Assembly: GCA_946550725.1 (NCBI GenBank)
Contig: CAMNQX010000002.1
Coordinates: 62,001-126,000, forward strand
Source: an uncultured Clostridia bacterium
Lineage (GTDB): Bacteria > Bacillota > Clostridia > Oscillospirales > Oscillospiraceae
Direction of reading: 5' to 3'
DNA length: 64,000 nucleotides
Program-made: the position numbers and the translations under genes
In this document: in pieces, positions 24,209 through 46,053 of the stretch
Numbering within the stretch: the stretch's first letter is position 1
How the letters are laid out: every line of letters begins with the position of its first letter
Notes under the pieces: generated by a model
Databases searched by the model: none
Told to the model about the DNA's origin: nothing
Seen by the model: the letters and a program-made list of their open reading frames with translations, nothing else

Positions 24209-24227
24209 GGTGTCCAAGTTGGACACC
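24209..24227. repeat. Dispersed prophage palindrome, site 1
   Basis: GGTGTCCAA-G-TTGGACACC, perfect arms, between tape measure stop and next gene. Confidence 0.9.
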
Positions 24228-27200
24228 TTACATCGCGTCGCTGGGATCATCCCGCATGGCGGCCCGCAGGTCGGGGAGCAGCCACCGGGCCACGGTCATG
24301 CCCTCCGGGGTCTGGAGCACAATGGTGGCAGACTGGGGGAGGTTGGACCCAGCGCCGGTTACGGCAGTCTGGACACCGTTGACCATGCCAGCCATCAGGT
24401 CGGCAAAGTCAGGCTGGGCGTTGGAGGCCGTCAAGCCGGGCACAGTCAGGTTGGCGGAAACCGCCCCTGCGTCGAAGTTGAGCCCGGACTGAATCTCCCT
24501 CCGCACCTTGGCAAAGTCCTCTTCCCAGCCCTGCGCCAGGCCCAAGGCCATATTGCCGCCGATGGACGCGAACACGGTGGAGGGGGAGTGGATGCCCAGT
24601 GTGTCCTTGGCTGCCGCGATGGTCGCCTTTGCCATCTCCACCGCCGCGTTGATGACGGTGCTGTTGTGGTCCCGGATTCCCTGCGCCAGGCCGTCCACCA
24701 GGGACTTGCCGATGTCGGGGGCGTTAGAATCAAAGAGCTGCTCCAGCGCCTGCATCTGCTCGGTCACCTTTTGGTCCGTCTCGTCCTTCAGACTGGCTAG
24801 CTCCTTCTCCGCCTGGGCCGCCGCCAGCTCGTGCTTTTTGGCGTAGAGGTCGGTGTAGGTCTGGAGCTGGTCGTCGTCCATGTTGAGCAGCGCGTCCAGC
24901 TGTCCGGCGACCTTTGGCCCCATCGCCCTGATCTCCTCGATCAAGTCGTCCGGGACAAAGGAGCGCTCCGCCAGTTGGTCCAGGCCGGCGTAAAAGCTAC
25001 CCAGGCTCTCAACCTGGCTGTCCAGGTTTTTGATCAGCTCTTTGGCGCTGACCTTCTCCGCCTCGGCGGCCTTATTAAACAGACCGTAGATGCCATAGAT
25101 GGACTCCGTCCGCTTAGCCAAGGCATCGTCATATTCCTTCTGGATCGTTTCCGCGGTCGCAAAGATCTCTTTCGCCGAGGCCTCGAACTCGGTCATCACC
25201 TTCTCGCGGAGGCTATATACCTGCTCCTCGGCCTTTTGGTATTGTTCCGATCCCGCCAGGACCCGCTTCTGGGCGTCCTCCCAGATAGCCAGCTGCTCGG
25301 CTGTGGTCGTGCCCTGGAGCTTGACTGCCTTCTGTGCGCTGCTGATGACTGCGTCATCATGCTCCTTCTGGATCTGTTGCCGCAGGTCAAAGATCTGCTC
25401 CTCCGCATCGGCATACTGCTGGGATCCCTTGACAAACTGGCTCTGGATGGTTTCCCAAACATCCACCTGGTCCTGCAGCGATAGCTGCAAATACTTGGTG
25501 TTCTTGTCCAGCCAGTCCTTAGAGGCGGTGTAGACGTTTTTCGCCAGGGCGTCGGCGGCCTTTGTCGCCTTGTTGGAGCTCTTATCGAGACCCTGGGCCA
25601 CGCCAAGCCCCATGTTATAGCCAATCTGGTCCCTGAACAGCGTAGAGGGAGAGTGGATGCCCAGGAAGCTCTTGACGCTGTCCACGATGCCGCCGAAAAA
25701 TCCTGTGACCTTCTCCTTGATCCAGCCCGCCATCCCCGTGATGCCCTCCCAGATGCCGGACACAATGTTTTTGCCGATGTCCATGATCTTAGAGGCATAG
25801 GTGGCAAAGCCATTGACGATGGCGGAGATGATCTGGGGGATAGACTGGACCAGCTGCGGGATAGCCTGGATAAGTCCAGCGGCTAGTTTGACGATCAGGT
25901 CAATTCCCGCCTGGATGATTTTGGGGAGGTTATTGGCAATGCCCATCACCAGGTTCTGGATGATGACGGGGGCCTGCTCCACCAGCCGGGGAAGCCCCTC
26001 GATCAGCCCGTCAGCCAAGGCCATGATCAGACCAATGGCGGAATCCACCATCTTGCCCAGGCTGTCCGGGTCGGTCAGGGTCTCAGCCAACTGCAAAATG
26101 GCGTCGATAGCCACTGGGATGAGCTCCGGGAGCTGCTCGGTGAGGCCGTCCGCCAGCGTGGTGATGATGGTGATAGCGCTGTCCAAGAGCTCAGGCGCCT
26201 TTTCGATCAGACTGGTAGCCAAAGTATTGACGGCGTCCAGTGCCACCGGCACCAGAACAGGAAGCGCCTCCATGAGGCCGTCTACCAAACCATCGATGAG
26301 GGCGGTGGCGGCGTCCAGCAAGGCCGGCACTACATCCTCCACCAGGCCCGGCAGTTCCTCCGCGATCACTGGGGCCAGCTGCTTGATGGCTTCTCCCATG
26401 CCGGACAGAGCCTGCTCCAGCACCGGGAGGATATTCTGACCCAGAGTGACCACGCTGTCCACCAGGTTGGTGATAAGCTGGTCCATGTCGGCGTCCTCGT
26501 CTGCCATTCCGGTAATCAGGTTGCTCCAGGCCGCCTTCATGGCGTTGGCGCTGCCCTCGATGGTGGTGCTGGCTTCCTGGGCCGTGGCACCGGCGATGCC
26601 CATGTTTTCCTGGACCAGGTGGATGGCTTCCACCACGTCGGCGTAGTTGGAGATATCAAATTTGCGCCCCATCGCACTGGGGAGTTGCTCCGCATCTTTG
26701 AGGAGCCGCTCCATCTCGCTCTTGGTGCCGCCGTACCCCAGCTTGAGGTTGTCCAGCATGGTGTAGTTTTGCTTGGCAAAACCCTGATAGGCAAACTGGA
26801 TAGATTCCATGGAGGTGCCCATCTTGTTGGCGTTGTCAGCCATGTCGGTGATGGCGACGTCGGCGACCTGGGCGGCTTTTGCCGTGTCTCCGTCCAGGGA
26901 GGCGATCAGCGCCGCCGAGAAAGAGGTCACCGTCTCCATATAGTCGTTGGCTGAGAGCCCGGCGGTCTTGTAGGCGTCGTTGGCGTTCTTGAGCACCTCC
27001 GCCTGGGCTGTCTCCAGCTGGCGGTAGGTGCTCTCCACTTCGGCAACGGTCTTGCCCTGGTCTGCCGCGTACTCCTGCAGGCTCTTGCCGCCTGCGCCGA
27101 AGAGGGTCTCCACACCGCCCACCAGCTGCTCATATTCCGCATAGCCTTCCAGCGACTGCTTTGCCAGCGCACCGATGGCTGCGCTGGCAGCCGCCAGACC

Positions 27201-27680
27201 GGCAGCGGCAGCCTTGCCCACTGCCGCCATGGCGGACCCCATAGCCTTCGCCGCCCCGCCGACCTTCTCGCCCATGCCGGAGAACTTGTCCCCGGTCTCC
27301 TCGGCAGTCTTGCCGTGGTCTTTCAGGGTCTCGTTGTTCTTCCGGATTTCGGCCTCTGCCTTATTCAGTTCGGCCTGGGTTTCGTTCACCGCCCGCTGCC
27401 ACTTCTGGGTCCGCTCGTCGGTTTCGCCAAAGGCGGCAGCGCTCTCAGCCAGCATCTTTTTCTGGAGGTCCAGCTTGGAGCTCAACTCGGTGACCGTCTT
27501 GCCCAGCACTTGGTTCTGGGCAGTCAAGGCCTTCTCCGAGTTTTCCTGCCCAATGAAAGCGGTGGTGACCACCTTCATTTCGGATCCAAGGGTCTTTAGG
27601 TTGGTGGTGATGCTGGAAATCTGCTTGCGAAATTCAGCCTCGCCGTCCATGCCGATTTTCGGGCCAAGATCATAGGGCAT
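24228..27680 (-). CDS. Phage tail tape measure protein
   Basis: 1150 aa; N-terminal coiled coil, long hydrophobic repeats, FFGGIVDSVKSFLGIHSPSTLFRDQIGYNMGLGVAQG. Confidence 0.95.
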   Translation of the reverse strand: MPYDLGPKIGMDGEAEFRKQISSITTNLKTLGSEMKVVTTAFIGQENSEKALTAQNQVLGKTVTELSSKLDLQKKMLAESAAAFGETDERTQKWQRAVNETQAELNKAEAEIRKNNETLKDHGKTAEETGDKFSGMGEKVGGAAKAMGSAMAAVGKAAAAGLAAASAAIGALAKQSLEGYAEYEQLVGGVETLFGAGGKSLQEYAADQGKTVAEVESTYRQLETAQAEVLKNANDAYKTAGLSANDYMETVTSFSAALIASLDGDTAKAAQVADVAITDMADNANKMGTSMESIQFAYQGFAKQNYTMLDNLKLGYGGTKSEMERLLKDAEQLPSAMGRKFDISNYADVVEAIHLVQENMGIAGATAQEASTTIEGSANAMKAAWSNLITGMADEDADMDQLITNLVDSVVTLGQNILPVLEQALSGMGEAIKQLAPVIAEELPGLVEDVVPALLDAATALIDGLVDGLMEALPVLVPVALDAVNTLATSLIEKAPELLDSAITIITTLADGLTEQLPELIPVAIDAILQLAETLTDPDSLGKMVDSAIGLIMALADGLIEGLPRLVEQAPVIIQNLVMGIANNLPKIIQAGIDLIVKLAAGLIQAIPQLVQSIPQIISAIVNGFATYASKIMDIGKNIVSGIWEGITGMAGWIKEKVTGFFGGIVDSVKSFLGIHSPSTLFRDQIGYNMGLGVAQGLDKSSNKATKAADALAKNVYTASKDWLDKNTKYLQLSLQDQVDVWETIQSQFVKGSQQYADAEEQIFDLRQQIQKEHDDAVISSAQKAVKLQGTTTAEQLAIWEDAQKRVLAGSEQYQKAEEQVYSLREKVMTEFEASAKEIFATAETIQKEYDDALAKRTESIYGIYGLFNKAAEAEKVSAKELIKNLDSQVESLGSFYAGLDQLAERSFVPDDLIEEIRAMGPKVAGQLDALLNMDDDQLQTYTDLYAKKHELAAAQAEKELASLKDETDQKVTEQMQALEQLFDSNAPDIGKSLVDGLAQGIRDHNSTVINAAVEMAKATIAAAKDTLGIHSPSTVFASIGGNMALGLAQGWEEDFAKVRREIQSGLNFDAGAVSANLTVPGLTASNAQPDFADLMAGMVNGVQTAVTGAGSNLPQSATIVLQTPEGMTVARWLLPDLRAAMRDDPSDAM

Positions 27681-27691
27681 AGGTGATCACC

Positions 27692-28257
27692 TCACTTCCA
27701 TTCCAGGAGGCGCCAGAAGTCCTCCTCGGTTTCTTTGTGCTTCTGGGTATAGCCATCCACCTTGATTTGGTCGATGGCTACCAGGTCCAGGAGCTCCCCA
27801 AATGGGAGGCACCTGGTCTCCTGGTAGCCAAGGCCAAGGTGGAGGCCATACCACAGGTACCACGCCGGGCTTATTGGTCCTTCTGCTCTCCGTCCGGCGT
27901 GGCGACGGCGTTTTTTGGCGGTTCCGCCTCTACCTGCCGCTCCGAGCCGTTGGTGATGGTCTCAGCCACCTTGGCCCGCAGCCCCATCAGCTCGCTCAGG
28001 TCGCAGCAGTCACGGATGTCCTCCTCCGAGAGCGCCGGCGCAGCCTCTAGCCCCTTGCGCTTGGCGTAGCTCTCGCCGGCGGTCATCATCCGGGCCAGTG
28101 CCCAGATAACCGTCCGCAGCTGGGTGGCCTGGTCGCCGTCCAGGGCGCTGAAAAAGCCCTCCAGCGTGCCGAACTTGTCGCAGGCGTCCTCCACCACGCC
28201 GGCGGAGAAGCAGAGCATCCGCTCCTGCCCGTCCAGGGTGATTGTTGCCGTCCTCAT
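27692..28257 (-). CDS. Phage tail assembly chaperone with -1 frameshift extension (G/GT-type)
   Basis: Frame 0 (27871-28257) ends ...EPPKNAVATPDGEQKDQ*. A -1 shift at AAAAAAC (27910-27916) stays open and yields ...RRRHAGRRAEGPISPAWYLWYGLHLGLGYQETRCLPFGELLDLVAIDQIKVDGYTQKHKETEEDFWRLLEWK*, ending 12 bp before the tape measure start. Confidence 0.85.
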
Positions 28258-28274
28258 TCAGCGTCCCTCCGATC

Positions 28275-28943
28275 TCACGCCGTCTTGGCGGCGCTCTTAG
28301 CCACGGCAGGCTGGGAGGCGGGCTGAGTGTCGGTAATGTTCATATAGCTCTTCACCAACGCCTCGGCGTCGGCCTCGCTGTCCAGGAGAGAGCTCTGCCG
28401 GAACCAGGGATGCTTGGGGGCGTCGCTACGCATGATGGTCGCCTCCAGCTCAGGGGTCTGCCACTCGATGGTCTCACCCTGGGTAGTGGCCTCGGTGCCG
28501 GGGGTGGTAAACTGGACCTTCTCCAGGATAAAGGCCACCCACTTGATGGCGCCGTCCACCTTCTTTTTCAGAATCCCGCCCACCGAGAGGTAGGGCGCGG
28601 CCTGGTCATCGTCGTAAACGTTCCAGTAGGCGTCCTTGGTCTCCAGCGCAGGGGTGGTCCCGATGGCCTCCTTGGAGACGCCCAGGATGGCCTGGGCGAT
28701 GTCGGGCATCAGCTCGGTGGTGCCCAGAGTGGCGGTGCCGCCGGAGAAGGTGCTGTCGCTCTCCGCGGGGGCGTTGTCTCCGTAGAGAACGTTGTCGTTT
28801 CCGCCATCCAGCGAGATGGAGAGACTGGTGTACTTGCCCATGACCCCGCCGTTTGAGCGGGTCACGGTGCCACCGTCGTTGTTGTAGACGGCGTAATAGG
28901 GTTTGCTAAGACCGATGGTAGCCATAGTTCGTTCTCCTTTCAC
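28275..28943 (-). CDS. Phage major tail protein (phi13-type)
   Basis: MATIGLSKPYYAVYNNDGGTVTRSNGGVMGKYTSLSISLDGGNDNVLYGDNAPAESD. Confidence 0.85.
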   Translation of the reverse strand: MKGERTMATIGLSKPYYAVYNNDGGTVTRSNGGVMGKYTSLSISLDGGNDNVLYGDNAPAESDSTFSGGTATLGTTELMPDIAQAILGVSKEAIGTTPALETKDAYWNVYDDDQAAPYLSVGGILKKKVDGAIKWVAFILEKVQFTTPGTEATTQGETIEWQTPELEATIMRSDAPKHPWFRQSSLLDSEADAEALVKSYMNITDTQPASQPAVAKSAAKTA

Positions 28944-29434
28944 GTTTTCATGATGTTTTTGAGGGACTTATCGACCGACTTTTGCATGGCCACCAGGGCG
29001 AGTTTACGGGTTCTGCCCATGGCCCGCTTGATGAAGGGGTTGGCTGCCATGAACGAGGTGCCCCGCTCCACGGCTCTTGCCACCACTACGTTGGGCTGAC
29101 CCTTGGGCCAGGTCTTGGTCTTGACCTCGTTGTAGCCGTCAAAGCCAAGCCGGACGTCGTAGATGCCGTCATCCTCCCGCATCTTGGTGATGCCGAAGGA
29201 TTCTAGTAGCGCTTTTTTCTGGGCCTTGTTTGGCCCCTGCAGCGGCACCCTGGCCACTGGAGGGCCCAGGCCGCCCTGGGTGGGCAGCGCCTGCAGCTCA
29301 CCCCGGATGGCGTCGGCGGCGATGTCGGCCCCATCGTAGATGGCTGGTCGGATCACCGATTCCTTTAGGCTCCGTTCTAGCCGGGAAAGGGCGGCGGTGT
29401 ACTCATCCAGACCCTTCATTTCGATCCGTGCCAT
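28940..29434 (-). CDS. HK97-gp10-like head-tail/tail completion protein
   Basis: MARIEMKGLDEYTAALSRLERSLKESVIRPAIYDGADIAADAIRGEL. Confidence 0.75.
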   Translation of the reverse strand: MARIEMKGLDEYTAALSRLERSLKESVIRPAIYDGADIAADAIRGELQALPTQGGLGPPVARVPLQGPNKAQKKALLESFGITKMREDDGIYDVRLGFDGYNEVKTKTWPKGQPNVVVARAVERGTSFMAANPFIKRAMGRTRKLALVAMQKSVDKSLKNIMKT

Positions 29435-29755
29435 TCAGGCCACCTCCCAATCCCAACTCCAGTGGTAAAAGCCGGTCTCCTCCTCGTACTCGATCTCCAC
29501 CAGACTCCAGGCGATCCCCGCCCGGTCAAAGCTCTCCCCCAGGGCATCGCCCCATGGGTCAACCTCCAGTTTGGTGTAGAGGTCGCTGGTGCCGGTGACC
29601 GTCTTTTCTGCATGGGCTCCGTCCCCGGTGAGGTCGTTGGCCCCGTCCTCTTGCCACACGATGTAGCGGTCCGACTGGAGTCGCTGGGTATGGCTCACGG
29701 CATCGGTGACAGCCAGGTGGGCCGCGATGATCTGTTCACGCCAGGTCACTTTCAC
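29435..29755 (-). CDS. Phage head-tail connector-region protein
   Basis: Collinear 106 aa ORF overlapping the upstream gene. Confidence 0.6.
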   Translation of the reverse strand: MKVTWREQIIAAHLAVTDAVSHTQRLQSDRYIVWQEDGANDLTGDGAHAEKTVTGTSDLYTKLEVDPWGDALGESFDRAGIAWSLVEIEYEEETGFYHWSWDWEVA

Positions 29756-30137
29756 CCACCTCCTCCATGGGGAGCTGCTCCATCCTGGCCAGGGTCAGGT
29801 CCAGGCTGGAGGGGTATACCTCGTCCACCGTCTGCACCATCTCAATACGGTACTGCCGGGCAGAGCCGGTGACGATGGCGACGTCCTGGGTGCTGACGGG
29901 GATACCCGCCGGGACTCTGACCACCCTCTCCACATCCACCTGGGCCTGCAGCGCGGTATACCGGCGGGTCAGCCCAAGCCGCTGCTCGGCAAAGGGCAAC
30001 TCACCTTTGGGGTGGAGCTGGGGCTTGGGCTTGTAACCCGGCTTAGCCCCGTCGGTCACCGCGCAGATGGTCACCAGCCCGTCGGGATAGCTCTGAGAGA
30101 TGCTATCCGTTCTGGGGCGGTACGGTGCTTTCCACAT
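29736..30137 (-). CDS. Phage head closure-like protein
   Basis: MWKAPYRPRTDSISQSYPDGLVTICAVTDG...VRVPAGIPVSTQDVAIVTGSARQYRIEMVQTV. Confidence 0.55.
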   Translation of the reverse strand: MWKAPYRPRTDSISQSYPDGLVTICAVTDGAKPGYKPKPQLHPKGELPFAEQRLGLTRRYTALQAQVDVERVVRVPAGIPVSTQDVAIVTGSARQYRIEMVQTVDEVYPSSLDLTLARMEQLPMEEVGESDLA

Positions 30138-30429
30138 AGGCCGCCACCCTCCTTCCATTCTGCATGGCAAGGATCCTGTTGGCATTATTGGCCTCGAACA
30201 CGTCCAGGGCGTTGTCCCGCCCGTACCGGACATAATCCATCAGGAGGGCACGGGCGGCCCCCGGGACCGTGTAGTCCGCAGGGGCGCCGTTCTTCTCGTC
30301 CAGATAGGCCATGCCGGACAGGATCAGCTCCGAGACCTTCATATCGGTGGTGACGGAGCTCCAAGTGATGTCAAGGTAGACCTTAACATCCGCCAGCAGC
30401 CCCGCCGGGATCTCGGTCCGGGCCGTCAT
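30103..30429 (-). CDS. Phage head-tail connector protein (DNA-packaging gp6-like)
   Basis: LLADVKVYLDITWSSVTTDMKVSELILSGMAYLDEKNG; directly after the capsid gene. Confidence 0.75.
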   Translation of the reverse strand: MTARTEIPAGLLADVKVYLDITWSSVTTDMKVSELILSGMAYLDEKNGAPADYTVPGAARALLMDYVRYGRDNALDVFEANNANRILAMQNGRRVAAYVESTVPPQNG

Positions 30430-30430
30430 C

Positions 30431-31903: not shown

Positions 31904-31918
31904 GATGTTTTCTCCTTT

Positions 31919-32734
31919 TCAGTTTTTAGTTTTGTCGGCAAAGAGAGCCAAAATGGCGTTCTGCTTGGGTTTCGGGTCAACCTCCGGCGCAGGAGCGGGC
32001 ACGGGCTCGGTGTCCAACTTGGACACCGGAGCGCTGGTCATATCCCGGAGGTGAGCCGCCAGGGTCCGCTGGAAGTCCAGCCGCTGCTGGGTGTCCAGAT
32101 TGGCCTTCTGGAGAACGGCGGCGGCGCCGCTCATATCGGCGTCTTGTTCAGCCATGCGGTCAGCCAGGCCCAGCTCAATGCACTGCTCTGCAGTGAGCCA
32201 GGTCTCGGCGTCCATCATCTCGACAAGCCGCTCCTCGGTGAGCTTGTCCCCGGCCTTGGCTAGGTAGGCCCCTCTACCGGCTGCACACATCACATCCAGG
32301 TCATCGGCGGCCTTCCGCAGCTCGGCGGCGGAGCCGATGGCGGACATCCAGACGTTGTGAATCATCATCAACGTGTTCCGGGGCATCACCACCTCGTCCC
32401 CAGCCATGGCGATCACCGAGGCGATGGAGCAGGCAAAGCCGTCCACATAGACCGTCTTGTGGGCCGGGTGCCGTTTGAGCTGGTTGTAAATCGCCGTGCC
32501 CTCAAAGACGCTACCGCCGTAGCTGTTGATGTAAATGTTGATCTGGGTGGCGTTGGGGTGGGCCCCCAGGACCTCCCGGAAGTGGTTGGCGCTGTTCTCG
32601 CTGTCCACCCAGTCGCCGTCCAAGAAGCCGCCCTCCCAGACCTCGCCTTCCACGTCGCCGTAGATAAAGAGGTCCAGGATGTTCGGGTCTGCCTGCTGCT
32701 TCAGCTCCCACATGGGCTTGTATTGCTTTCTCAT
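31919..32734 (-). CDS. ClpP-like head maturation protease
   Basis: INIYINSYGGSVFEGTAIYNQLKRHPAHKTVYVDGFACSIASVIAMAGDEVVMPRNTLMMIHN. Confidence 0.93.
   Translation of the reverse strand: MRKQYKPMWELKQQADPNILDLFIYGDVEGEVWEGGFLDGDWVDSENSANHFREVLGAHPNATQINIYINSYGGSVFEGTAIYNQLKRHPAHKTVYVDGFACSIASVIAMAGDEVVMPRNTLMMIHNVWMSAIGSAAELRKAADDLDVMCAAGRGAYLAKAGDKLTEERLVEMMDAETWLTAEQCIELGLADRMAEQDADMSGAAAVLQKANLDTQQRLDFQRTLAAHLRDMTSAPVSKLDTEPVPAPAPEVDPKPKQNAILALFADKTKN
32009..32027. repeat. Dispersed prophage palindrome, site 2
   Basis: GGTGTCCAA-C-TTGGACACC, perfect arms, inside the protease 3' coding region (encodes VSKLDT). Confidence 0.9.
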
Positions 32735-32751
32735 ACTTGGTTACCTCCTTT

Positions 32752-33921: not shown

Positions 33922-33952
33922 GCTCCTCCGCTCCCTTCCAAACAAAAAATAA

Positions 33953-36236: not shown

Positions 36237-36255
36237 TGTGTCCAACTTGGACACC
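36237..36255. repeat. Dispersed prophage palindrome, site 3
   Basis: TGTGTCCAA-C-TTGGACACC, about 30 bp upstream of terS start. Confidence 0.88.
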
Positions 36256-36878: not shown

Positions 36879-37031
36879 TCAATGGCTCAGGCTCAAATCG
36901 ATATCCAAGAATTGCTCCTTCTTGCAGTGTCGGCACCAAGCGTATGCCTTGACCTTCCCGTCCTCTGGGAGCCGGATCAGCCGCATCTGCCCACACTCGG
37001 GACAGAGGACCCATCCATCCTTTGAGACCAT
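36879..37031 (-). CDS. Cysteine-rich KTR/Com-like zinc ribbon protein
   Basis: MVSKDGWVLCPECGQMRLIRLPEDGKVKAYAWCRHCKKEQFLDI: two CxxC pairs. Confidence 0.75.
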   Translation of the reverse strand: MVSKDGWVLCPECGQMRLIRLPEDGKVKAYAWCRHCKKEQFLDIDLSLSH

Positions 37032-37142
37032 TTTACACGCATCGGGCAAGAAAATCAACCCCTTTATCAAAACGTGACTAAATAACCACTAGATTTCAAG
37101 ATTGTACCCGCGCACGCGCGCGCGATTATTATTGTCTGGAAT

Positions 37143-37913
37143 CTAGCTGACCATCTCGATCCAGCTGCCGTAATAGTACGCGCCCCAGTCGTTCTCGACG
37201 CCGCCACGCCGGGCCCACAGCACCCCGTCCGGAATCTCGATGGCCCCAGTGCTGTCCATCCACCGCTCTGTCTCAGGCACCATGGCGTTGAGGCTCCGGG
37301 AGCAGCTCCAGGGGTGCCGTCCGATGGGGATGATCACCCCGTCGGTCCGCTCCTTGTTGAGGTACTCAGCCAACCGCCGGTAGCCGCCATCTGAGACCTC
37401 TTCCCACCTGCCCGTCTTTGGGTCCCGATAGGACCTGGTCCGCAACACCGGCTCGGCATCAGTGGCTCCCTGCCGCCAGAGCTGGACTACGCTGTCTTGA
37501 CTAAGCTGATCTCCCGAACAACAAAAATGGATGTGGTAACGGTGGTCGCCGTGCAGTCCTTCGATGGCGTAGCAGTAAGGCAAAGGCGGTGCCCGGTCTC
37601 CAAGGTGCCGCTTGACCCTGGATAGAAAGGCACGGAGCGACCGCCGTACTCCGGCAAAGTCCGCCGGCAGATGCTCATCGTCAAAGGTCAAAGTGTAATG
37701 GGTTCCCGTGGGCCCCAGGAGGGCCAGCCGAATTTCCAGCCGGTCCACCTGGCGCCGGTCCACGGCGCTCTTCTGGTAGCGCTTCAGTTCGGACTTCTGC
37801 CGGTGATCCTGGTCGGTATCCTCCAGGGAGAACCGAGGCCGTAGCGCCCGGCACTCTTTCACCAGCGGCCCAGCGCGGATACGGCAGCAGTGCCAGATCA
37901 ACGGGCTAGACAT
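37143..37913 (-). CDS. HUH-type rolling-circle Rep-like protein
   Basis: Motif 1 THYTLTFDD, HUH motif HRYHIHF, putative Tyr motif GYRRLAEYLNKE. Confidence 0.7.
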   Translation of the reverse strand: MSSPLIWHCCRIRAGPLVKECRALRPRFSLEDTDQDHRQKSELKRYQKSAVDRRQVDRLEIRLALLGPTGTHYTLTFDDEHLPADFAGVRRSLRAFLSRVKRHLGDRAPPLPYCYAIEGLHGDHRYHIHFCCSGDQLSQDSVVQLWRQGATDAEPVLRTRSYRDPKTGRWEEVSDGGYRRLAEYLNKERTDGVIIPIGRHPWSCSRSLNAMVPETERWMDSTGAIEIPDGVLWARRGGVENDWGAYYYGSWIEMVS

Positions 37914-38442: not shown

Positions 38443-38444
38443 CC

Positions 38445-38663
38445 TCACGCCTCCTTCGCAAAGTACCCGCCGGTGGAGTAGTCCCAATCAATGGTGCCAT
38501 CGGGGTACACGCCGCAGCCATGAGCCTGCAGGATCCAGCCGCTGGCCGTATTCTGCATGACGGCATCGTAGAGATTCCTCAGCCCCCGCAGGCACCGGAA
38601 CTCCCCGCCGCCATGATTGCGGTAGATCTGGCCCGGTACCGGGGTGAACTTCTGCCGCCCCAT
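38445..38663 (-). CDS. Small phage hypothetical protein
   Basis: MGRQKFTPVPGQIYRNHGGGEFRCLRGLRNLYDAVMQNTASGWILQAHGCGVYPDGTIDWDYSTGGYF. Confidence 0.65.
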   Translation of the reverse strand: MGRQKFTPVPGQIYRNHGGGEFRCLRGLRNLYDAVMQNTASGWILQAHGCGVYPDGTIDWDYSTGGYFAKEA

Positions 38664-40198
38664 CACTCATCCTCCGGGAGCAGAATCCACTTGGTAAACT
38701 GCTGCCCCAGTCCGGTCAGTTCCTTGTCGGGTTTTCCGGGGGCATGGAAGCGGCGGCCATCCCAAACAGCCGGAGTGTACTTGGGCCCAGCGTTGGTAAG
38801 GTCATAGGTAATGATGATCTCACCCTCTGGCGGGGTCTCTCCCCGGCCATGCCACTCCCGGACTTCTTTCTTGATCTCCCGGACTTCTCTGGGATCATCC
38901 GTCCGACAAAGGAGGTAGTCAATGGAACAGCCCAGGGCATCGGCTGTCTTAATCAATGGCCGGATCCGCCACTCATCCACGCCATCGCCACCGGCATAGG
39001 GCAACCCCCCGCTGCTGGGGGTGATTTTCTTGCCCTGCTCAAAATCAGCAATCTTCTTTTCCCGGCGGAAGGCCCGCACGTCCGCTTTTTTTGCGTATTC
39101 CTCAAAGGTCAACCCGGCTCTGGCCCTGGCTTCTCCAAAGCGTTTCCACAGCCGCACAGTGGGGGCACACATGGCCTCGTTCTCCTTCGCCTTTTTAAGT
39201 TTTTCCTTGGATTGCTTTTCCTTGGCGGCGTTTTGGGCCTTCTCGACCTCGCCACTCAGATGGGGGCAAGCAGAGCTGCATATACCTAGGTTAGGGCAAT
39301 CATGGCAGCATTTCCCATCGGCACAATGATCGTCATAGCTACGGCCTCCAGCGACCATACGGGCAAGACGAGCTGCCCCCCAGTCACAGGCCTCGCAGGT
39401 GCCTTTTGGCCCTTTTCGGGGTTTCAGCTCCTTTTTCACTTTCTCGGCGTAATAAGTGACGTTTCCCTCATGCCATTGTTTTGGCTCACTCATCCACGCC
39501 GAACTTTCACGCACCATCCTGGCGGTCAGGCGTTGGGCCTCCGGCGTCAGCTTGGCGAAAGCATAGGCCACGCTCTCATTCAGATCACCCTTTTCCCAGT
39601 ATGGCATCAGTTCATCGATCAGTTTCTCTTTGATCACCTTCAGCCGGGCCAGCTTGGAGGCCGACACCTTACAGGCCTCCGCAACATGATCCCGCATTTT
39701 CCCAGGGAACTCCACCCCGGCCTCCTTCAGCTGGTAGAGAAGCATCTCCACCCGCTCCGCCTGCTTGGAAATATCAGCAGAACTCATGCGGCGGGTGTCG
39801 CTGTTACCGTAGATCAGGCGCAGCTCCTGAAGCCAACCCTCGACTTCATCGGTGGCGCCGCTTTGCTTCTCCACGATACAAGCCACCTGGCGGAACTTCT
39901 CATTGCCCTCCTGCACCAGCTGGGAGAGCGCCGCATGGCGGCGGTGGCCGGACACGATGATATAATGGCCCTCCCGCTCCGAATCGGGCCGGACACGGAG
40001 GGGCTGCTGGAGCCCGGCAAACTCGATATTGGCTGCCAGCTCCGGGATCCCCGGCAGCTCGTAGAAGTTCCGCTCATCCTGATGGAGCCGGTCAATGTCG
40101 ATGTACTCGATCTGCTCCCGGACCTCAATGCCGGTGTCCAAAATGGACACCTCACCCAGCGCGGCGGCCAGGTCAAAACCCTTTTTCTTCTCAGCCAT
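38663..40198 (-). CDS. ParB-like protein with Cys-rich insertion and C-terminal XRE-type HTH
   Basis: ParB/Srx-like EYIDIDRLHQDERNFYELPGIPELAANIEFAGLQQPLRVRP...IIVSGHRRHAAL; CEAC...CADGKCCHDCPNLGICSSACPHL; XRE-like RARAGLTFEEYAKKADV. Confidence 0.85.
   Translation of the reverse strand: MAEKKKGFDLAAALGEVSILDTGIEVREQIEYIDIDRLHQDERNFYELPGIPELAANIEFAGLQQPLRVRPDSEREGHYIIVSGHRRHAALSQLVQEGNEKFRQVACIVEKQSGATDEVEGWLQELRLIYGNSDTRRMSSADISKQAERVEMLLYQLKEAGVEFPGKMRDHVAEACKVSASKLARLKVIKEKLIDELMPYWEKGDLNESVAYAFAKLTPEAQRLTARMVRESSAWMSEPKQWHEGNVTYYAEKVKKELKPRKGPKGTCEACDWGAARLARMVAGGRSYDDHCADGKCCHDCPNLGICSSACPHLSGEVEKAQNAAKEKQSKEKLKKAKENEAMCAPTVRLWKRFGEARARAGLTFEEYAKKADVRAFRREKKIADFEQGKKITPSSGGLPYAGGDGVDEWRIRPLIKTADALGCSIDYLLCRTDDPREVREIKKEVREWHGRGETPPEGEIIITYDLTNAGPKYTPAVWDGRRFHAPGKPDKELTGLGQQFTKWILLPEDE
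40133..40151. repeat. Dispersed prophage palindrome, site 4 (one mismatch)
   Basis: GGTGTCCAA-A-ATGGACACC, inside parB-like CDS ~50 bp after its start codon. Confidence 0.8.
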
Positions 40199-40970
40199 TG
40201 TGAGATCCTCCCTTCATCAAATCACGAACAAACCGGCGATAATCCACACCGGCAGCACTCCGGGGGCTGCTGATCAGCAGCGGCTCCTGGGCAAAGGTCA
40301 TGTCGTCCACCTTGTCGGTGCGGCGAATGTGATCAAAGACCGGCAGGCCGCTGGCCTTCAGGGTCTCCTCCGCCTCCACGATCTGGGGAGAGTTGTACCA
40401 CATGGTGGGCAGGCAACCGGACAGCTTCAAGCCAGGGTTGATCCGGCGCATATTGGAGATCTGGCGCATCATGTTGGTCATGCCTCGCAGACTAAAGGCG
40501 TCCAGCTTGATGGGGATAATGACCTCATCGGCAGCGATCAGAGCGGCCGCACTGGCGGCGTTGAATGCCGGGGGGCAGTCCACCAGACACCAGTCGTAGG
40601 CGTCTACCTCCTCCAGGCTGGTGCGGACGCTCCGCAGCGTCCCCGCCTGCACGCTGCCCAGCTCTACCTTGGTCAGGTCCAGGTCCATCAAAGTCACATC
40701 GGCGGGGATTATATCAACGCCCTTGATGCTGGTGTGATGGATATACTCCTCCACCACGTCCTCCACGCCGGAGGCCGTATCACGGAGCAGGTCGGCCAGA
40801 CTGGGGGCGGCGGCATCCACTCCGAAAAAGTCTGTGGTATTACACTGGCTGTCGGCATCTATCAGCAGTACCCGCTGCCGATAGTCCCTTGCCAGGATGG
40901 CGGCGGTGTTTATGACTGTGGTCGTCTTGCCCACACCGCCCTTCAGGTTGATCACTGCGATTGTCCTCAT
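40191..40970 (-). CDS. ParA-family ATPase
   Basis: MRTIAVINLKGGVGKTTTVINTAAILA deviant Walker A; LIDADSQCNTTDFFG; overlaps parB-like start. Confidence 0.93.
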   Translation of the reverse strand: MRTIAVINLKGGVGKTTTVINTAAILARDYRQRVLLIDADSQCNTTDFFGVDAAAPSLADLLRDTASGVEDVVEEYIHHTSIKGVDIIPADVTLMDLDLTKVELGSVQAGTLRSVRTSLEEVDAYDWCLVDCPPAFNAASAAALIAADEVIIPIKLDAFSLRGMTNMMRQISNMRRINPGLKLSGCLPTMWYNSPQIVEAEETLKASGLPVFDHIRRTDKVDDMTFAQEPLLISSPRSAAGVDYRRFVRDLMKGGSHNG

Positions 40971-40985
40971 GGGTTTGCCTCCTTG

Positions 40986-41192
40986 TCAAAATTTGAACGT
41001 CTCTCTTTGTTGCACACCGTTGATCTCGTATCCAACGGTGAAGTGCCGATGGGGGTAGTTGACCGAGATGATCTCCCCGGTCACGGTGATCTTCGCCTTT
41101 TTGCCCCGGCGGTCTCCCTGGTTCGGGTCGGTCCATGCGTACTCGTAGGCAGGGGTGAAACTGTGCCTGTCTCCGACGCGAGGTGTCTCCAT
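40986..41192 (-). CDS. Small phage hypothetical protein
   Basis: METPRVGDRHSFTPAYEYAWTDPNQGDRRGKKAKITVTGEIISVNYPHRHFTVGYEINGVQQRETFKF. Confidence 0.6.
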   Translation of the reverse strand: METPRVGDRHSFTPAYEYAWTDPNQGDRRGKKAKITVTGEIISVNYPHRHFTVGYEINGVQQRETFKF

Positions 41193-41205
41193 GTCTCTCA
41201 CCCCC

Positions 41206-42522
41206 TCAGAACGGCAGAGGTTCGCCGTCGTTGGGCAGCTCGTGGAATTGCATTTGCTGGTCCGCAGGCTTCTCCTCGGCCTTTTCAGTCCGTTTTCGCT
41301 CAGGAGGCGGGTCCAGCGTGCTGACACAGCGGAAACGCTGGGTCGCTCCATCGAACATCAAGTCCAAATGCCCAACTCGGCCCTCTTTGTTCTTGGCAAT
41401 ATCCAGTTGACGCCCTGGGTCTCGCAGGTCATCTGGATTAGTGCGATACAGCATCATGATGACATCGGCATCCTGCTCATATTGACCAGAATCTCTGATG
41501 TCTGAAATTTTAGGGGTGCTGGTGCAACGGTTGAGCTGCGCCAGGCCCACCACAGTGATCCCGGTTGCTCTGGCCTTGGTGTGCAACGCCGAGCTGATTT
41601 TGGACTGCTTTTCATAGGCGGAAGCCTTTTCGTCTCCTGCGATGATCTGCACATAGTCGATATAGATGACCTGGAGCCGTTTGGATTGTGCGTCCGCAAA
41701 AATGTCATCTACTGTCCACCCGGCGGCGCCTGTCGTATCCAGACTGTGCTTTTCCATCTGGGCCGCCGCCACCGCAAACGCCTCGTAATCGTCCTCAGTT
41801 GGAGACCCAGCCTTGATTCTCTCCATGTCCACCCCAGCCACCCGCGCAAAGGTCCGCTCCGCAATTTGCCCATAGCCGGTTTCCAGGCTATACATGCCGA
41901 CCCGATACTTTTCGGCCTGTGCGTAGGCCGCCATCAAGGCAAAGGCTGTTTTCCCCGCCGATGGCCTTGCCGCGATCAAAATGAAACTCCCCGGCTCCGC
42001 GTAGATCGAACGATTCAAGTCGTAGAGACCCCAGGGCAAGTATTCTTTTGGCTTTTTGAGCCGCTCGTAGAAAATCTCCACGAGCTGTTTCATGGACACG
42101 CCTCTGGAGCGTTGGTTGGTCACCAGCTCCGCGTTGATTCTTGCCGTTACGTCCCGGGCCGCCTCCCCCGTCTGGACAGATATAAGCTCCATGCCCAGGG
42201 CCTGCAAGCGCGCCACTTGTGCGCGCTCCTTGCAGATTTTGATGTACTCGCGATATTCCGTGACGGACGGAACAATTTCCATACACTGCTTGAGGGTTTC
42301 TGCCAGGTCAGGCGATGAATTGACTCTCAGCGCATCGCAAACAGTGACCAAATCAACATGTTTCCCCTCGCTGAACAGAAAGCGGATGGTCTGAAAGATA
42401 TTTCGGTAAACCTCGTCGAGGAAGTCCTGCGGATCCATTTCCGCCAGGACGTGGCCAATGATTTTTTCATCAATCAGCATCGCGCCGATGACGCTGGCCT
42501 GTGAAATAATTCTGTCTGTCAT
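41206..42522 (-). CDS. dnaB: Replicative DNA helicase (DnaB-like)
   Basis: Walker A AARPSAGKTAFALMAA; IDYVQIIAGDEK; SDIRDSGQYEQDADVIMMLYR. Confidence 0.94.
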   Translation of the reverse strand: MTDRIISQASVIGAMLIDEKIIGHVLAEMDPQDFLDEVYRNIFQTIRFLFSEGKHVDLVTVCDALRVNSSPDLAETLKQCMEIVPSVTEYREYIKICKERAQVARLQALGMELISVQTGEAARDVTARINAELVTNQRSRGVSMKQLVEIFYERLKKPKEYLPWGLYDLNRSIYAEPGSFILIAARPSAGKTAFALMAAYAQAEKYRVGMYSLETGYGQIAERTFARVAGVDMERIKAGSPTEDDYEAFAVAAAQMEKHSLDTTGAAGWTVDDIFADAQSKRLQVIYIDYVQIIAGDEKASAYEKQSKISSALHTKARATGITVVGLAQLNRCTSTPKISDIRDSGQYEQDADVIMMLYRTNPDDLRDPGRQLDIAKNKEGRVGHLDLMFDGATQRFRCVSTLDPPPERKRTEKAEEKPADQQMQFHELPNDGEPLPF

Positions 42523-43346
42523 AGCGGCGGTAGGGAGCTCCTCACCGTGTGGGCTTGTCTATCATCCGCAACGTCTCCCAGCTCTGCGGCGTTGCCCAGG
42601 TAGTCGTCCAGGTTGTTCAGGAACGTGGCCACATGAGGGATCCCGATTCCCTTCTGCCATTCCTCGCTGGCCGTCAGCTTTTTCAGGGCCGCGGCCATCG
42701 CGTCGATCACCGCCTTGCTCGGCCGGAGCTTGTCCCAGGCGTTCATGGCCCGCTGCTTGTTGCGCTTCCCCTTCGACGGGTAGAACCGCCAAAGGCCCTC
42801 AAAGCGGGCAGGCTCCCAGTCGGGCGCCTCACGCGGTCCTTTCCTGCGTGTGCGCCCCGTGCCCTTTGTGGGGGGATTATGGGGGGTATTACTGTTAAGT
42901 CTATTATTACTTTGTGGCGAAAAAACCGGCACCGGTTTTTTCGTCAACGGTGCAACCGTTGACGATTTTTCAGGCAACGGTGCGCCCTCCTCGTCCGCAG
43001 GGGGTTCCTCCGGCGGAGTATCCTCACCCGCCGGAATACCTTCCTCGGCGCTGCTGAACACCCGGACGACGTACTCGTTTCCGCCAAAGGTTCCTTTATC
43101 TCCGTGGAGCTGACGGCGGGTCAGGTATCCCGCCTCCTCCAGCTCCACCAGGGATTTGCGGATGGTGTCCCGGCTCAGCCCACAGTAAACCGCTAGGCCC
43201 CGGACCGAGAAGTCCCAGTCCGGGGGACGCGACGCCATCACTAGCAGGAGACCCAGCGTCCGCAGGGAGAGCCGCCGGTCGCACACCGTTTGGTTTGGCA
43301 GCGGCGTGAAGTCCATCCACGGCTCTATCCTGATCACGTCGGACAT
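42519..43346 (-). CDS. Phage replication initiation wHTH protein (DnaD/O-like)
   Basis: N-terminal wHTH RGLAVYCGLSRDTIRKSLVELEEAGYLTRRQL; directly upstream of dnaB. Confidence 0.75.
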   Translation of the reverse strand: MSDVIRIEPWMDFTPLPNQTVCDRRLSLRTLGLLLVMASRPPDWDFSVRGLAVYCGLSRDTIRKSLVELEEAGYLTRRQLHGDKGTFGGNEYVVRVFSSAEEGIPAGEDTPPEEPPADEEGAPLPEKSSTVAPLTKKPVPVFSPQSNNRLNSNTPHNPPTKGTGRTRRKGPREAPDWEPARFEGLWRFYPSKGKRNKQRAMNAWDKLRPSKAVIDAMAAALKKLTASEEWQKGIGIPHVATFLNNLDDYLGNAAELGDVADDRQAHTVRSSLPPL

Positions 43347-43358
43347 CTGACCACCCCC

Positions 43359-43387
43359 TTGCAAAACCCAAACGGGTGTGTTATAAT
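43359..43387 (+). promoter_or_regulatory. Plus-strand sigma70 promoter for a candidate small RNA
   Basis: TTGCAA 43359-43364, 17-nt spacer, TATAAT 43382-43387. Confidence 0.75.
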
Positions 43388-43393
43388 ATTTGC

Positions 43394-43460
43394 GTCCTCA
43401 TGGAGGCTTTGCCTCCTGGCCCCCTTGGTGGTGTACCCGCACCCCAGGGGGCATTTTTTA
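43394..43460 (+). ncRNA. Candidate ~65-nt small RNA antisense to the early-operon direction (OOP-like position)
   Basis: Own promoter, hairpin GGAGGC-TTT-GCCTCC (43402-43416), terminator hairpin GCCCCCT...AGGGGGC + ATTTTTT (43419-43460), no ORF. Confidence 0.7.
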
Positions 43461-43470
43461 TGCTCTGAAA

Positions 43471-43695
43471 TCATGACATCCACCTCGCCAACGCTACCTT
43501 CGGCACCACATAGGAGCCGCCATACTTGCTTTGTCCGCCCACCTTTTTGGCGGGAAAGGTCTTGTCGCCCAGCAGCGTACCCCGGTAAACGCCCAAATAC
43601 GCCGCTACATCTGCGATCTTGAGGGTCTCCCGGCCCGGATAGGCTTCATCCAGACGGGCCAAATTCTCCCGGAATCCCGGTTTCTCCAATGGCAT
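43471..43695 (-). CDS. Small DNA-binding/excisionase-like phage protein
   Basis: ETLKIADVAAYLGVYRGTLLGDKTFPAKKVGGQSKYGGSYVVPKVALARWM: MerR-type HTH helix. Confidence 0.65.
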   Translation of the reverse strand: MPLEKPGFRENLARLDEAYPGRETLKIADVAAYLGVYRGTLLGDKTFPAKKVGGQSKYGGSYVVPKVALARWMS

Positions 43696-43712
43696 GATGC
43701 GTTCCTCCCTTC

Positions 43713-43731
43713 GGTGTTCAACTTGGACACC
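43713..43731. repeat. Dispersed prophage palindrome, site 5 (one mismatch)
   Basis: GGTGTTCAA-C-TTGGACACC, intergenic. Confidence 0.85.
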
Positions 43732-43755
43732 GCTTTTTACGCGCTGTCCGCTCGG

Positions 43756-44223
43756 TCAACATTGTTCATCATCTTCTGATTTGCAGAATTTGAGCTCCAT
43801 GGCGGCCCGGCAGATGTCCTGCAGGTCCTCCATGATGGCGTCATACTCCTGGCGCTCATTGACATCGATGCGCCCGTCAGCTGCCAGCGAGACCAGCCGC
43901 TGGTCGGCATGGCTCCGCCCGAAGGCCGTGACCTTGTCCAGCAGGTTTAGCACTGCCTGGGGCAGAGGCTTGCCCGGCTCAAATTCCGGCATGGAGGCCT
44001 GCACGCTCCCCCGGCTCAGCTCCCGGAGGTACATTCCCGCCAGCCAGGGGGCGTCGTAGCACACCGCCAGGGTGTCCAGGGCCTCCACGGCACACCGCCG
44101 GGTCCCCGCCTCCCAAGCCTGGATGGCGTCCACCGAGTAGCCCGACATTTCCGCGGCCTTCTCTTGGGTGATGCCGGCGGTCCTCCGGGCCCGACGCAGG
44201 GCGTTCTGGGACAGATTGTCCAT
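43756..44223 (-). CDS. XRE-family transcriptional regulator
   Basis: LRRARRTAGITQEKAAEMSGYSVDAIQAWEAGTRRCAVEALDTLAVCYD. Confidence 0.8.
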   Translation of the reverse strand: MDNLSQNALRRARRTAGITQEKAAEMSGYSVDAIQAWEAGTRRCAVEALDTLAVCYDAPWLAGMYLRELSRGSVQASMPEFEPGKPLPQAVLNLLDKVTAFGRSHADQRLVSLAADGRIDVNERQEYDAIMEDLQDICRAAMELKFCKSEDDEQC

Positions 44224-44228
44224 GGTGA

Positions 44229-44438
44229 TCACTCCGTTTCCGTGGTATGGTTATTGTAGAGCTCGTCGATAGTGCAGCCCAGGATCTGGGACAGCCGGGG
44301 CAGGTCCCGAGCCTTGGGCAGAGCCGCCTCGCTCTCCCAGTTACCAACGGCGCCCTGCACAACTCCCATCTGCTCCGCCAAGCAGGCCTGGGACAGCCCA
44401 GCCGCCTCCCGGCGCGTCTTGATGCACATAACGCCCAT
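44229..44438 (-). CDS. Cro-like XRE regulator
   Basis: MGVMCIKTRREAAGLSQACLAEQMGVVQGAVGNWESEAALPKARDLPRLSQILGCTIDELY; divergent from repressor. Confidence 0.85.
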   Translation of the reverse strand: MGVMCIKTRREAAGLSQACLAEQMGVVQGAVGNWESEAALPKARDLPRLSQILGCTIDELYNNHTTETE

Positions 44439-44458
44439 TGCGTCACCTCCCCTCTGTC

Positions 44459-44526
44459 TAACAGTATTTGTGTTAGCACGGCAAGAATAACACAACCTCT
44501 GTTGATTGTCAACAGTAATTTTGTTA
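44459..44526. promoter_or_regulatory. Three-site operator between cro-like and repressor genes
   Basis: TAACAGTATTTGTGTTA (44459-44475), TAACACAACCTCTGTTG (44488-44504), CAACAGTAATTTTGTTA (44510-44526): each YAACA-N7-TGTTR. Confidence 0.75.
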
Positions 44527-44592
44527 TTTTCTTTTTCTCGCCTTGCATAACATCATTAAATCTGATACCATTGTGTCGCTGAGGTGATACAG

Positions 44593-45204
44593 ATGTTCCA
44601 AGTCAAGCTAAAAAACCTGCGGGAGCAGCGAGGGCTATCGCAGGCTGGACTAGCACACCGGCTCGGCGTCGGTCAGTCCGCCGTTGGAAACTGGGAAAGC
44701 GGTCGTTGCTTGCCTTCGACCGCCATGTCGCAAAAAATTGCCTCATTTTTTAACGTGAGCGTTGACTACCTTTTCGGAATTTCACAGGTGAAGGATCCTG
44801 CGAAGCCGAAGTCCATCCGAGTGCCCGTCCTGGGTGATGTGGCTGCCGGTATCCCAATCGAGGCCGTCACCGACATCGTGGACTACGAGGAGATCGACGC
44901 CGCCCTGGCGGCTTCCGGTGAGTTCTTTGGTCTCCGGATCAAAGGGTCCAGCATGGAGCCCCGGATGCGGGAGGGGGACGTGGTCATCGTCCGCAAGCAG
45001 GATGCCGCCGAGACCGGGGACACCGTAGTGGTGCTGGTCAACGGCGACAGCGCCACGGTGAAGAAAATAAAATACGGGCCGGACGGGATCACGCTGATTC
45101 CATCCAACCCGACCTTTGACCCATTGTTTTACAGCGCCCAAGAGGTAGAAAGCCTGCCCGTCCGTGTCCTCGGTCGGGTGGTGGAACTCCGAGCAAAATA
45201 TTAA
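44593..45204 (+). CDS. LexA/CI-like S24 repressor
   Basis: XRE HTH LKNLREQRGLSQAGLAHRLGVGQSAVGNWESGR plus S24 peptidase GEFFGLRIKGSSMEPRMREGDVVIVRKQ...GDSATVKKI. Confidence 0.95.
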   Translation: MFQVKLKNLREQRGLSQAGLAHRLGVGQSAVGNWESGRCLPSTAMSQKIASFFNVSVDYLFGISQVKDPAKPKSIRVPVLGDVAAGIPIEAVTDIVDYEEIDAALAASGEFFGLRIKGSSMEPRMREGDVVIVRKQDAAETGDTVVVLVNGDSATVKKIKYGPDGITLIPSNPTFDPLFYSAQEVESLPVRVLGRVVELRAKY

Positions 45205-45207
45205 AGC

Positions 45208-45226
45208 GGTGTCCAAGGTGGACACC
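45208..45226. repeat. Dispersed prophage palindrome, site 6 (one mismatch)
   Basis: GGTGTCCAA-G-GTGGACACC, flanked by GC...GC extending the arms, just after the repressor stop codon. Confidence 0.85.
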
Positions 45227-45250
45227 GCAAAAATGAAAGGAGAAAGAGAC

Positions 45251-46033
45251 ATGGTTACGATTCCCGCGAAGGTAAAAGACAGGCTGATTGCTGGGGTGAA
45301 GAAGTTCCAGCCCGTGGTGAAGAAAGCTCAAGCCAAGGACATCAACGAGAGCGACACCGTCACCATTGTGTCCGATATCCTATCCGACGTATTCGGCTAT
45401 GACAAGTACAGCGAGATCACGTCGGAGTTCGCTATCAAGAAAACTTTCTGCGACCTGGCCACCCAGATCAATGGGGTAACCAAGCTGCTTATGGAGGTCA
45501 AGGCGGTGGGCCTTGAACTGAAGGATCAGCACGTCAAACAGGCGGTTGATTACGGCGCAAACGCCGGCATTGAGTGGGTCGTGCTGACCAACGGCGTTGA
45601 CTGGCGGGTATACAACATTGTTTTTGGTAAACCCGTCATGGCGGAGCTGGTATATAACTTCAACCTTACCACCCTGAATCCCAAGAAGCAAAACGAGTTG
45701 GAAATGCTGTACTACCTGTCCCGCGAATCCATGGCCAAGGGGAATCGCACGTCCTTGGATGATTTTCATTCCCAACAGCAGTTGGTCAACAAGGTCATGA
45801 TTGCCCAGATCCTGATGGCAGACCCTGTCCTGGACACGGTCCGCAAGACCCTCCGCAAGCTCTCAGCAGACCTGAAAATCTCCAATGACGAGATACAGCA
45901 TATCATTACCGACGAAATCATCAAGCGGGACGTGCTGGACGACGATCGTGCCGCCGACGCCAAAAAGAAGGTCGCAAAGGCCCTCAAGCCCGCTGCAAAG
46001 CCCGCCAAGGCAACGACTGACGTAGGGGAATAA
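45251..46033 (+). CDS. Solo type I restriction HsdR N-terminal-like protein (PD-(D/E)xK-like)
   Basis: DIFGYDKY-type region (LSDVFGYDKYSEITSEFAIKK), LLMEVKAVGLELKDQHVKQAVDYGANAGIEWVVLTNGVDWRVY. Confidence 0.75.
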   Translation: MVTIPAKVKDRLIAGVKKFQPVVKKAQAKDINESDTVTIVSDILSDVFGYDKYSEITSEFAIKKTFCDLATQINGVTKLLMEVKAVGLELKDQHVKQAVDYGANAGIEWVVLTNGVDWRVYNIVFGKPVMAELVYNFNLTTLNPKKQNELEMLYYLSRESMAKGNRTSLDDFHSQQQLVNKVMIAQILMADPVLDTVRKTLRKLSADLKISNDEIQHIITDEIIKRDVLDDDRAADAKKKVAKALKPAAKPAKATTDVGE

Positions 46034-46034
46034 C

Positions 46035-46053
46035 AGTGTCCAAGTTGGACACC
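46035..46053. repeat. Dispersed prophage palindrome, site 7
   Basis: AGTGTCCAA-G-TTGGACACC, directly after the HsdR_N-like stop codon. Confidence 0.88.

What the first reader, a model, noticed from the sequence alone, without database searches (positions are those of the whole stretch)
24209..46053. Seven dispersed copies of a 19-bp palindrome GGTGTCCAA-N-TTGGACACC confined to the prophage
Sites: 24209-24227, 32009-32027, 36237-36255, 40133-40151, 43713-43731, 45208-45226, 46035-46053. Most have perfect or one-mismatch arms. They are both intergenic and intragenic (encoding VSKLDT/VSILDT in the head protease and ParB-like genes), and I saw none outside the prophage. They are not the repressor operators: the cro/repressor region carries a different motif (YAACA-N7-TGTTR) and no copy of this one. 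Candidate roles are parS-like sites for the encoded ParA/ParB-like pair (one site lies inside parB), dispersed stoperators, or sites for another phage regulator.
Basis: partly seen in the sequence, partly recalled or inferred. Interest (0 to 1): 0.78.

Follow-up and report, generated by a model that had tools for sequence, protein, structure and literature searches.

The report
Dispersed parS sites of a prophage
The repeated palindrome is very probably the DNA address (parS) read by the prophage's own ParB protein, part of a DNA-segregation system; unusually, the copies are scattered along a chromosome-integrated virus and one is built into the reading frame of the parB gene itself.

Summary
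All seven sites are where stated and an eighth lies at 22637-22655. All eight fall inside a 31.2-kb prophage bounded by 27-bp att repeats in tRNA-Ser. Chance predicts 0.06 sites; the rest of the 1.76-Mb assembly has one weak match.

The sites are very probably parS centromeres of the prophage's own ParA/ParB pair. Among 78 non-redundant ParB relatives collected by protein sequence alone, 67 carry the same palindrome class at the start of parB. In 64 of these it sits in frame inside parB, and the codon choice there shows selection on the DNA rather than the peptide. Each element has its own symmetric site variant, shared between its parB copy and its dispersed copies. That variant covaries with two ParB recognition-helix residues. 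ParB is modelled as a ParB/Noc/KorB-type CTPase clamp.

The partition role is inferred. KorB-like silencing by the same protein, or action during lytic replication, is not excluded. Terminators, repressor operators and stoperators are rejected or disfavoured.

Known kinds: ParABS, N15 and RK2 KorB. New: this parS family, its in-frame embedding in parB, and its dispersal in prophages that also carry an integrase.

The parts
24209..24227 (.). parS-like site, perfect arms, in the 36-nt gap between the tape-measure gene and the next gene
32009..32027 (.). parS-like site, perfect arms, in the 3' part of the head protease gene (encodes VSKLDT)
36237..36255 (.). parS-like site, 1 mismatch, about 31 nt upstream of the terminase small-subunit start; Flavonifractor phage Cormatin has one at the equivalent place
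40133..40151 (.). parS-like site, 1 mismatch, in frame within parB codons 17-22 (VSILDT)
43713..43731 (.). parS-like site, 1 mismatch, 18 nt upstream of a 74-aa HTH gene
45208..45226 (.). parS-like site, 1 mismatch, 4 nt after the S24 repressor stop codon
46035..46053 (.). parS-like site, 1 mismatch, 2 nt after the stop of the HsdR_N-like gene
38663..40198 (-). parB: ParB/Noc/KorB-type CTPase-clamp protein, 511 aa; HTH at 168-192, Cys-rich region, long helix and extra C-terminal domain
40191..40970 (-). parA: Walker-type partition ATPase, 259 aa, KGGVGKTT
41206..42522 (-). DnaB-like helicase, same operon as parAB
42519..43364 (-). replication initiator (O/DnaD-like)
37143..37913 (-). second replication initiator (ORF2/G2P type)
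44584..45204 (+). S24-type repressor (divergent from the early operon; not the likely reader of these sites)
46801..47838 (+). tyrosine integrase
16666..16692 (.). attL, 3' end of tRNA-Ser(GCT)
47885..47911 (.). attR, identical 27 bp

Best explanation
The palindromes are parS sites (core GTGTCCAA-N-TTGGACAC) bound by the ParB-like protein encoded at 38663-40198. Inferred mechanism: a ParB dimer uses its helix-turn-helix to dock on a site, closes as a CTP-dependent clamp and slides off along the phage DNA. With eight entry sites, the whole 31-kb genome can be decorated. ParA (40191-40970), bound to the host nucleoid, then moves and separates the ParB-coated DNA. Because the prophage is integrated and has its own integrase, two replication initiators and a helicase, the system most probably acts when the genome is excised and circular, after infection or induction, keeping the replicating or carrier-state molecules from being lost or clumped. 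Shown here by comparative evidence: the sites belong to and co-evolve with this ParB. Inferred: CTP clamping, ParA-driven segregation, and the stage at which it acts. My confidence is about 0.93 that ParB reads the sites and about 0.6 that partition is the main job.
For: (1) Of 78 non-redundant ParB relatives selected by protein only, 67 have a site of at least 14/16 class matches near the parB start and 60 have at least 15/16. Random stretches of the same loci reach 14 in about 5%, and those include the dispersed sites. (2) 64 are in frame in parB. There Leu is TTG in 29 of 37 (background 8%), Asp GAC 43/43 (62%), Val GTG 64/64 (49%) and Ser TCC 45/46 (34%). One element has the palindrome one base out of frame and others have it upstream of parB, so the DNA and not the peptide is kept. 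(3) Palindrome arms covary, and the parB-embedded variant predicts the variant of the other sites in the same element (rho 0.81 and 0.67, n=51). (4) Apart from site-encoded residues 18-21, the protein positions that covary most with site position 4 are 184 and 180, in the recognition helix (180-192). With the tree taken into account, residue 180=K ranks first of 480 residue states. (5) De novo repeated palindromes in most ParB elements are this class. (6) 69 fetched loci without ParB (782 kb) hold 2 sites, both on contigs that end at the par region, against 188 sites in 1125 kb of ParB elements. (7) The ParB model (pLDDT 88) matches ParB, Noc and KorB structures, the CTP-motif residues GHRR are invariant, and a ParA is adjacent. 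(8) The host has its own, different parS, TGTTTCACGTGAAACA.
Against: No binding, CTP or stability data exist for this family. ParB_N and TIGR00180 scores are below their curated cut-offs, the consensus ParA-binding motif is absent by inspection, and the canonical C-terminal dimer domain is not recognised. The prophage is integrated, so partition is not needed in the lysogen. parAB lie in the early lytic operon. Sites sit preferentially at gene borders, which a regulatory role would also predict. Phylogeny-corrected tests for single residues are suggestive (median p 0.06-0.125), not significant alone.
Confidence: 0.8

Rival explanations
1. KorB-like use: the same ParB binds the same sites, but its main job is genome-wide transcriptional silencing or coordination, sliding from distal sites to promoters, rather than partition.
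For: Sites are dispersed as KorB OB sites are on RK2; KorB is among the best structural matches. 43% of sites are intergenic against 20% of random positions, several end 10-30 nt upstream of start codons, and sites are dense around the repressor/integrase module.
Against: An adjacent ParA is kept throughout the family (nearly all loci). Many sites lie inside genes near their 3' ends or directly after stop codons rather than at promoters, and which genes carry sites changes between phages. Sites are depleted over repO-dnaB-parA, where autoregulation would put them.
Confidence: 0.2
2. Lytic-phase organisation: ParB on dispersed sites (with ParA or host SMC) condenses or spaces replicating phage genomes during induction, aiding replication or packaging rather than inheritance.
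For: parAB sit downstream of cro, repO and dnaB in the early operon, divergent from the S24 repressor. A site lies next to terS in two phages and near terL in others.
Against: No clear preference for the terminase region; no direct evidence of expression timing.
Confidence: 0.2
3. Sites of another phage regulator (S24 repressor or XRE proteins), that is stoperators.
For: Distribution in gene gaps resembles L5 stoperators (PMC9283540).
Against: Repressor region carries a different motif. L5 sites are asymmetric and oriented with transcription; these are symmetric. Site variants follow ParB recognition-helix residues. ParB-less loci lack sites.
Confidence: 0.04
4. Intrinsic transcription terminators or other RNA hairpins.
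For: Two window sites are flagged as terminator-like and 22 of 55 co-directional intergenic sites follow a stop codon within 10 nt.
Against: A sense-strand U-tract follows only 2 of 55 such sites (random 5.7%). Sequence, not only pairing, is conserved. One copy is inside the parB coding start.
Confidence: 0.02

Closest known systems
RK2/RP4 KorB-OB system (IncP-1)
   Same: ParB-family protein with sites dispersed round the element; odd-length palindrome (from memory, TTTAGCSGCTAAA); KorB structures are among the top fold matches
   Different: RK2 is a plasmid, KorB works with KorA on promoters (PMC11790492); here the element is an integrating prophage, the site sequence is different and no KorA partner was identified
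Phage N15 SopAB with centromere sites IR1-IR4
   Same: temperate phage with ParAB and several dispersed single palindromic sites (four IR sites: PMC7205306; the dispersal is from memory)
   Different: N15 prophage is a linear plasmid needing active partition (PMC7205306); this one has att repeats and a tyrosine integrase; site and ParB are unrelated in sequence
Chromosomal ParB-parS and Noc-NBS
   Same: CTPase clamp fold, HTH reader, symmetric site; residue 180 here appears to correspond to specificity residue R173 of Caulobacter ParB (PMC7383237). A parS inside the parB gene has a precedent in B. subtilis spo0J (from memory)
   Different: site is 17-19 bp with an odd centre, versus the 16-bp TGTTTCACGTGAAACA that the host itself carries
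Cluster A mycobacteriophage parABS (RedRock)
   Same: temperate phage parABS
   Different: there parABS replaces the integration cassette and parS is arrays of 8-bp direct repeats (PMC7157519); here integrase and parABS coexist and sites are dispersed palindromes
Partition functions of integrative elements (SXT/R391 srpMRC; SGI1 parS)
   Same: an integrated element uses partition to protect its transient circular form (PMC4489591, PMC10954446)
   Different: R391 uses an actin-type system; SGI1 borrows a helper plasmid's ParAB

Membership tests
ParABS (type I partition) | ParA with deviant Walker A, next to parB | tested here: met
   KGGVGKTT; AAA_31 E 2e-40; ParA phrog_164
ParABS (type I partition) | ParB CTPase fold with conserved nucleotide motifs | tested here: met
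   GHRR invariant in 92 sequences; profile hit to Noc/Spo0J E 4e-14; fold hits to ParB/Noc/KorB E 2e-7; single-sequence Pfam/TIGR scores below cut-off
ParABS (type I partition) | central HTH that reads parS | tested here: met
   helices 168-176 and 180-192 modelled; residues 180/184 covary with the site; mapping to known ParB numbering made by eye
ParABS (type I partition) | palindromic parS near parAB | tested here: met
   67 of 78 relatives
ParABS (type I partition) | consensus ParA-binding motif (L/F/I)G(K/R)G(L/F/I) in ParB N-terminus | tested here: not met
   N-terminus MAEKKKGFDLAAALG does not fit the pattern given in PMC12704722; that paper notes mobile-element ParBs usually lack it, so this is not a defining feature of them
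ParABS (type I partition) | canonical C-terminal dimerisation domain | tested here: inconclusive
   C-terminal half is Cys-rich plus long helix plus a beta domain; no Pfam match there above cut-off; dimerisation not modelled
ParABS (type I partition) | site binding, CTP hydrolysis, stabilisation of a replicon | not testable with these tools
   needs experiment
KorB-OB | dispersed ParB-family operators | tested here: met
KorB-OB | repression of promoters with a clamp-locking partner (KorA) | not testable with these tools
   no KorA homologue recognised in the genes scanned; regulation needs experiment
N15-type plasmid prophage | linear plasmid prophage, no chromosomal integration | tested here: not met
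   tyrosine integrase, 27-bp att repeats in tRNA-Ser
L5-type stoperators | asymmetric 13-mers bound by the immunity repressor | tested here: not met
   symmetric sites; repressor region has another motif

The most novel reading that the evidence does not exclude
In these gut-bacterial phages ParB has become a genome-wide organiser or silencer of an integrated prophage: dispersed parS sites let CTP clamps coat the whole prophage and control its folding, expression or replication, with segregation secondary. The parS-parB embedding, in which the DNA site dictates a piece of the protein that reads it, would be part of a self-contained selfish module passed between phages.
Probability: 0.22. Interest if true: 0.78.

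Novelty: new variant of a known kind. Interest (0 to 1): 0.56.

Why it matters
It gives a concrete site sequence and reader for a widespread, mostly unannotated ParABS family in phages of Oscillospiraceae and related gut bacteria. Natural, matched site and reader variants supply a test set for how ParB specificity evolves. It also raises a testable question: why do phages that integrate keep a centromere system? An active, laboratory-held relative (Flavonifractor phage Cormatin) carries it.

Tried and rejected
Terminator hairpins: sense U-tract at 2 of 55 sites; an antisense A/U bias remains unexplained. Peptide conservation (VSxLDT) as the cause: rejected by codon use, an out-of-frame copy, upstream copies, P/G co-changes (VPxxGT) and low modelled order of residues 17-21. 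Even spacing: gaps somewhat more regular than random (CV 0.69 against 0.89) but largely set by the par-to-lysogeny-module distance; no claim made. Related-phage controls through DnaB and TerL fetched mostly distant phages, useful only as ParB-less negatives; the Rep query gave few relatives. Megablast against named phages: none. Library search for the site sequence found no paper describing it in phages (open-licence papers only). PDB search with the HTH segment alone: none. The gene caller used for site context was home-made and rough.
Full report
Observation. The seven sites are exact and an eighth (22637-22655, two mismatches) belongs with them. Shuffles predict 0.06. The host assembly has no other copy at 0-1 mismatch and one at 2. 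The prophage runs between 27-bp identical att repeats at 16666-16692, in tRNA-Ser(GCT), and 47885-47911, with a tyrosine integrase next to attR. All sites are inside it.

Setting. PHROGs and Pfam give a siphophage: tail, capsid, protease, portal and terminase on the minus strand, then Rep(G2P), ParB, ParA, DnaB, RepO and XRE/cro, with an S24 repressor divergent. parAB are therefore in the early operon. Host segregation uses a different site, canonical parS TGTTTCACGTGAAACA, two copies on C8.

The site follows ParB. A pattern scan of viral contigs for the 17-bp core brought up loci with divergent parAB homologues and a site at the parB start. To avoid circularity, relatives were then collected by protein alone. 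In 78 non-redundant cases, 67 have a site of the class GTG[TC]CC[AG]A-N-T[TC]GG[AG]CAC near the parB start, 64 in frame at about codon 17. A de novo palindrome search finds the same class as the repeated palindrome in most elements. ParB-less loci are essentially empty: 2 sites in 782 kb, both on contigs that end beside where parB should be, against 188 sites in 1125 kb.

DNA is what is kept. The embedded copy encodes VS(N/K/D)(L/S)DT, and its codons are strongly biased to those that complete the palindrome (Leu TTG 29/37 against 8% background; Asp GAC 43/43; Val GTG 64/64). When the palindrome changes to GTGCCC..GGGCAC the peptide changes to VPxxGT. In L164 the palindrome is one base out of frame, and in several elements it is upstream of parB. 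The model gives residues 17-21 pLDDT below 50.

Variants are concerted within elements (rho 0.81 and 0.67, n=51). Outside the site-encoded residues, positions 184 and 180 covary best with site position 4. Both are in the modelled recognition helix. On a tree built without those columns, 180=K goes with the C variant in 4.75 independent pairs and against it in 0, the best of 480 states. By eye, 180 corresponds to Caulobacter ParB R173, an established specificity residue (PMC7383237). The fold is ParB/Noc/KorB and the sequence profile hits Noc and Spo0J.

Placement. Apart from the parB copy, sites sit in gene gaps or gene ends: 43% are intergenic against 20% for random positions, and 22 of 55 co-directional intergenic sites start within 10 nt of a stop codon. 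They peak at parB, just after it, and 6-10 kb upstream (repressor/integrase side), and are rare over parA-dnaB-repO. The host genes of dispersed sites differ between phages, though close relatives share some: L038 keeps the pair that brackets the HsdR_N-like gene (827 and 840 bp apart). Cormatin, an induced, chromosomally located, cos-packaged prophage of Flavonifractor plautii (PMC10197239), has four sites, one in parB and one before terS.

Mechanism. Best supported: ParB docks on parS, clamps with CTP, spreads, and is moved by ParA. Because the element integrates, partition would matter for excised or carrier-state molecules, as argued for integrative elements (PMC4489591, PMC10954446). In mycobacteriophages parABS replaces the integrase (PMC7157519); here both occur together in the window and in 18 of 50 longer loci, counting only integrases like the window's. 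KorB-like silencing or a lytic-phase role with the same reader are live rivals. Terminators and repressor operators are not.

Membership. It meets the structural and genetic criteria of ParABS. It lacks the consensus ParA-binding motif, and its C-terminal half is unusual. CTP use and segregation are untested. It is a new variant of a known kind.

Noticed in passing
45208-46053: Two sites bracket a single HsdR_N-like gene (45251-46033) exactly; the same bracketing pair is seen in L038 (sites 1531 and 2371).
   Followed up: partly
50579-62359: A 3926-aa open frame on the + strand is matched by a 3908-aa open frame on the - strand over nearly the same 11.7 kb, outside the prophage.
   Followed up: no
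18593-19972: Tail-region gene with about seven repeats of 138-144 nt (D1/D2 families), perhaps a variable receptor-binding protein.
   Followed up: no
all dispersed sites: Co-directional intergenic sites often have an A-rich stretch just upstream on the sense strand (antisense U-tract at 20 of 55, sense at 2 of 55); unexplained.
   Followed up: partly
related loci, 1-5 kb upstream of parB: Sites are strongly depleted over parA-dnaB-repO (9 sites in about 310 kb), although dense on both sides.
   Followed up: partly
L207:10049, L223:4882, L264:9740: Rarer site variants (GTGTCGGAAACCGACAC; GTGTCAAAGTCTGACAC) suggest further specificity classes.
   Followed up: no
38663-40198: ParB carries a nearly invariant Cys-rich region (about 263-311) and a C-terminal domain not recognised by Pfam; a metal site is likely.
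   Followed up: no
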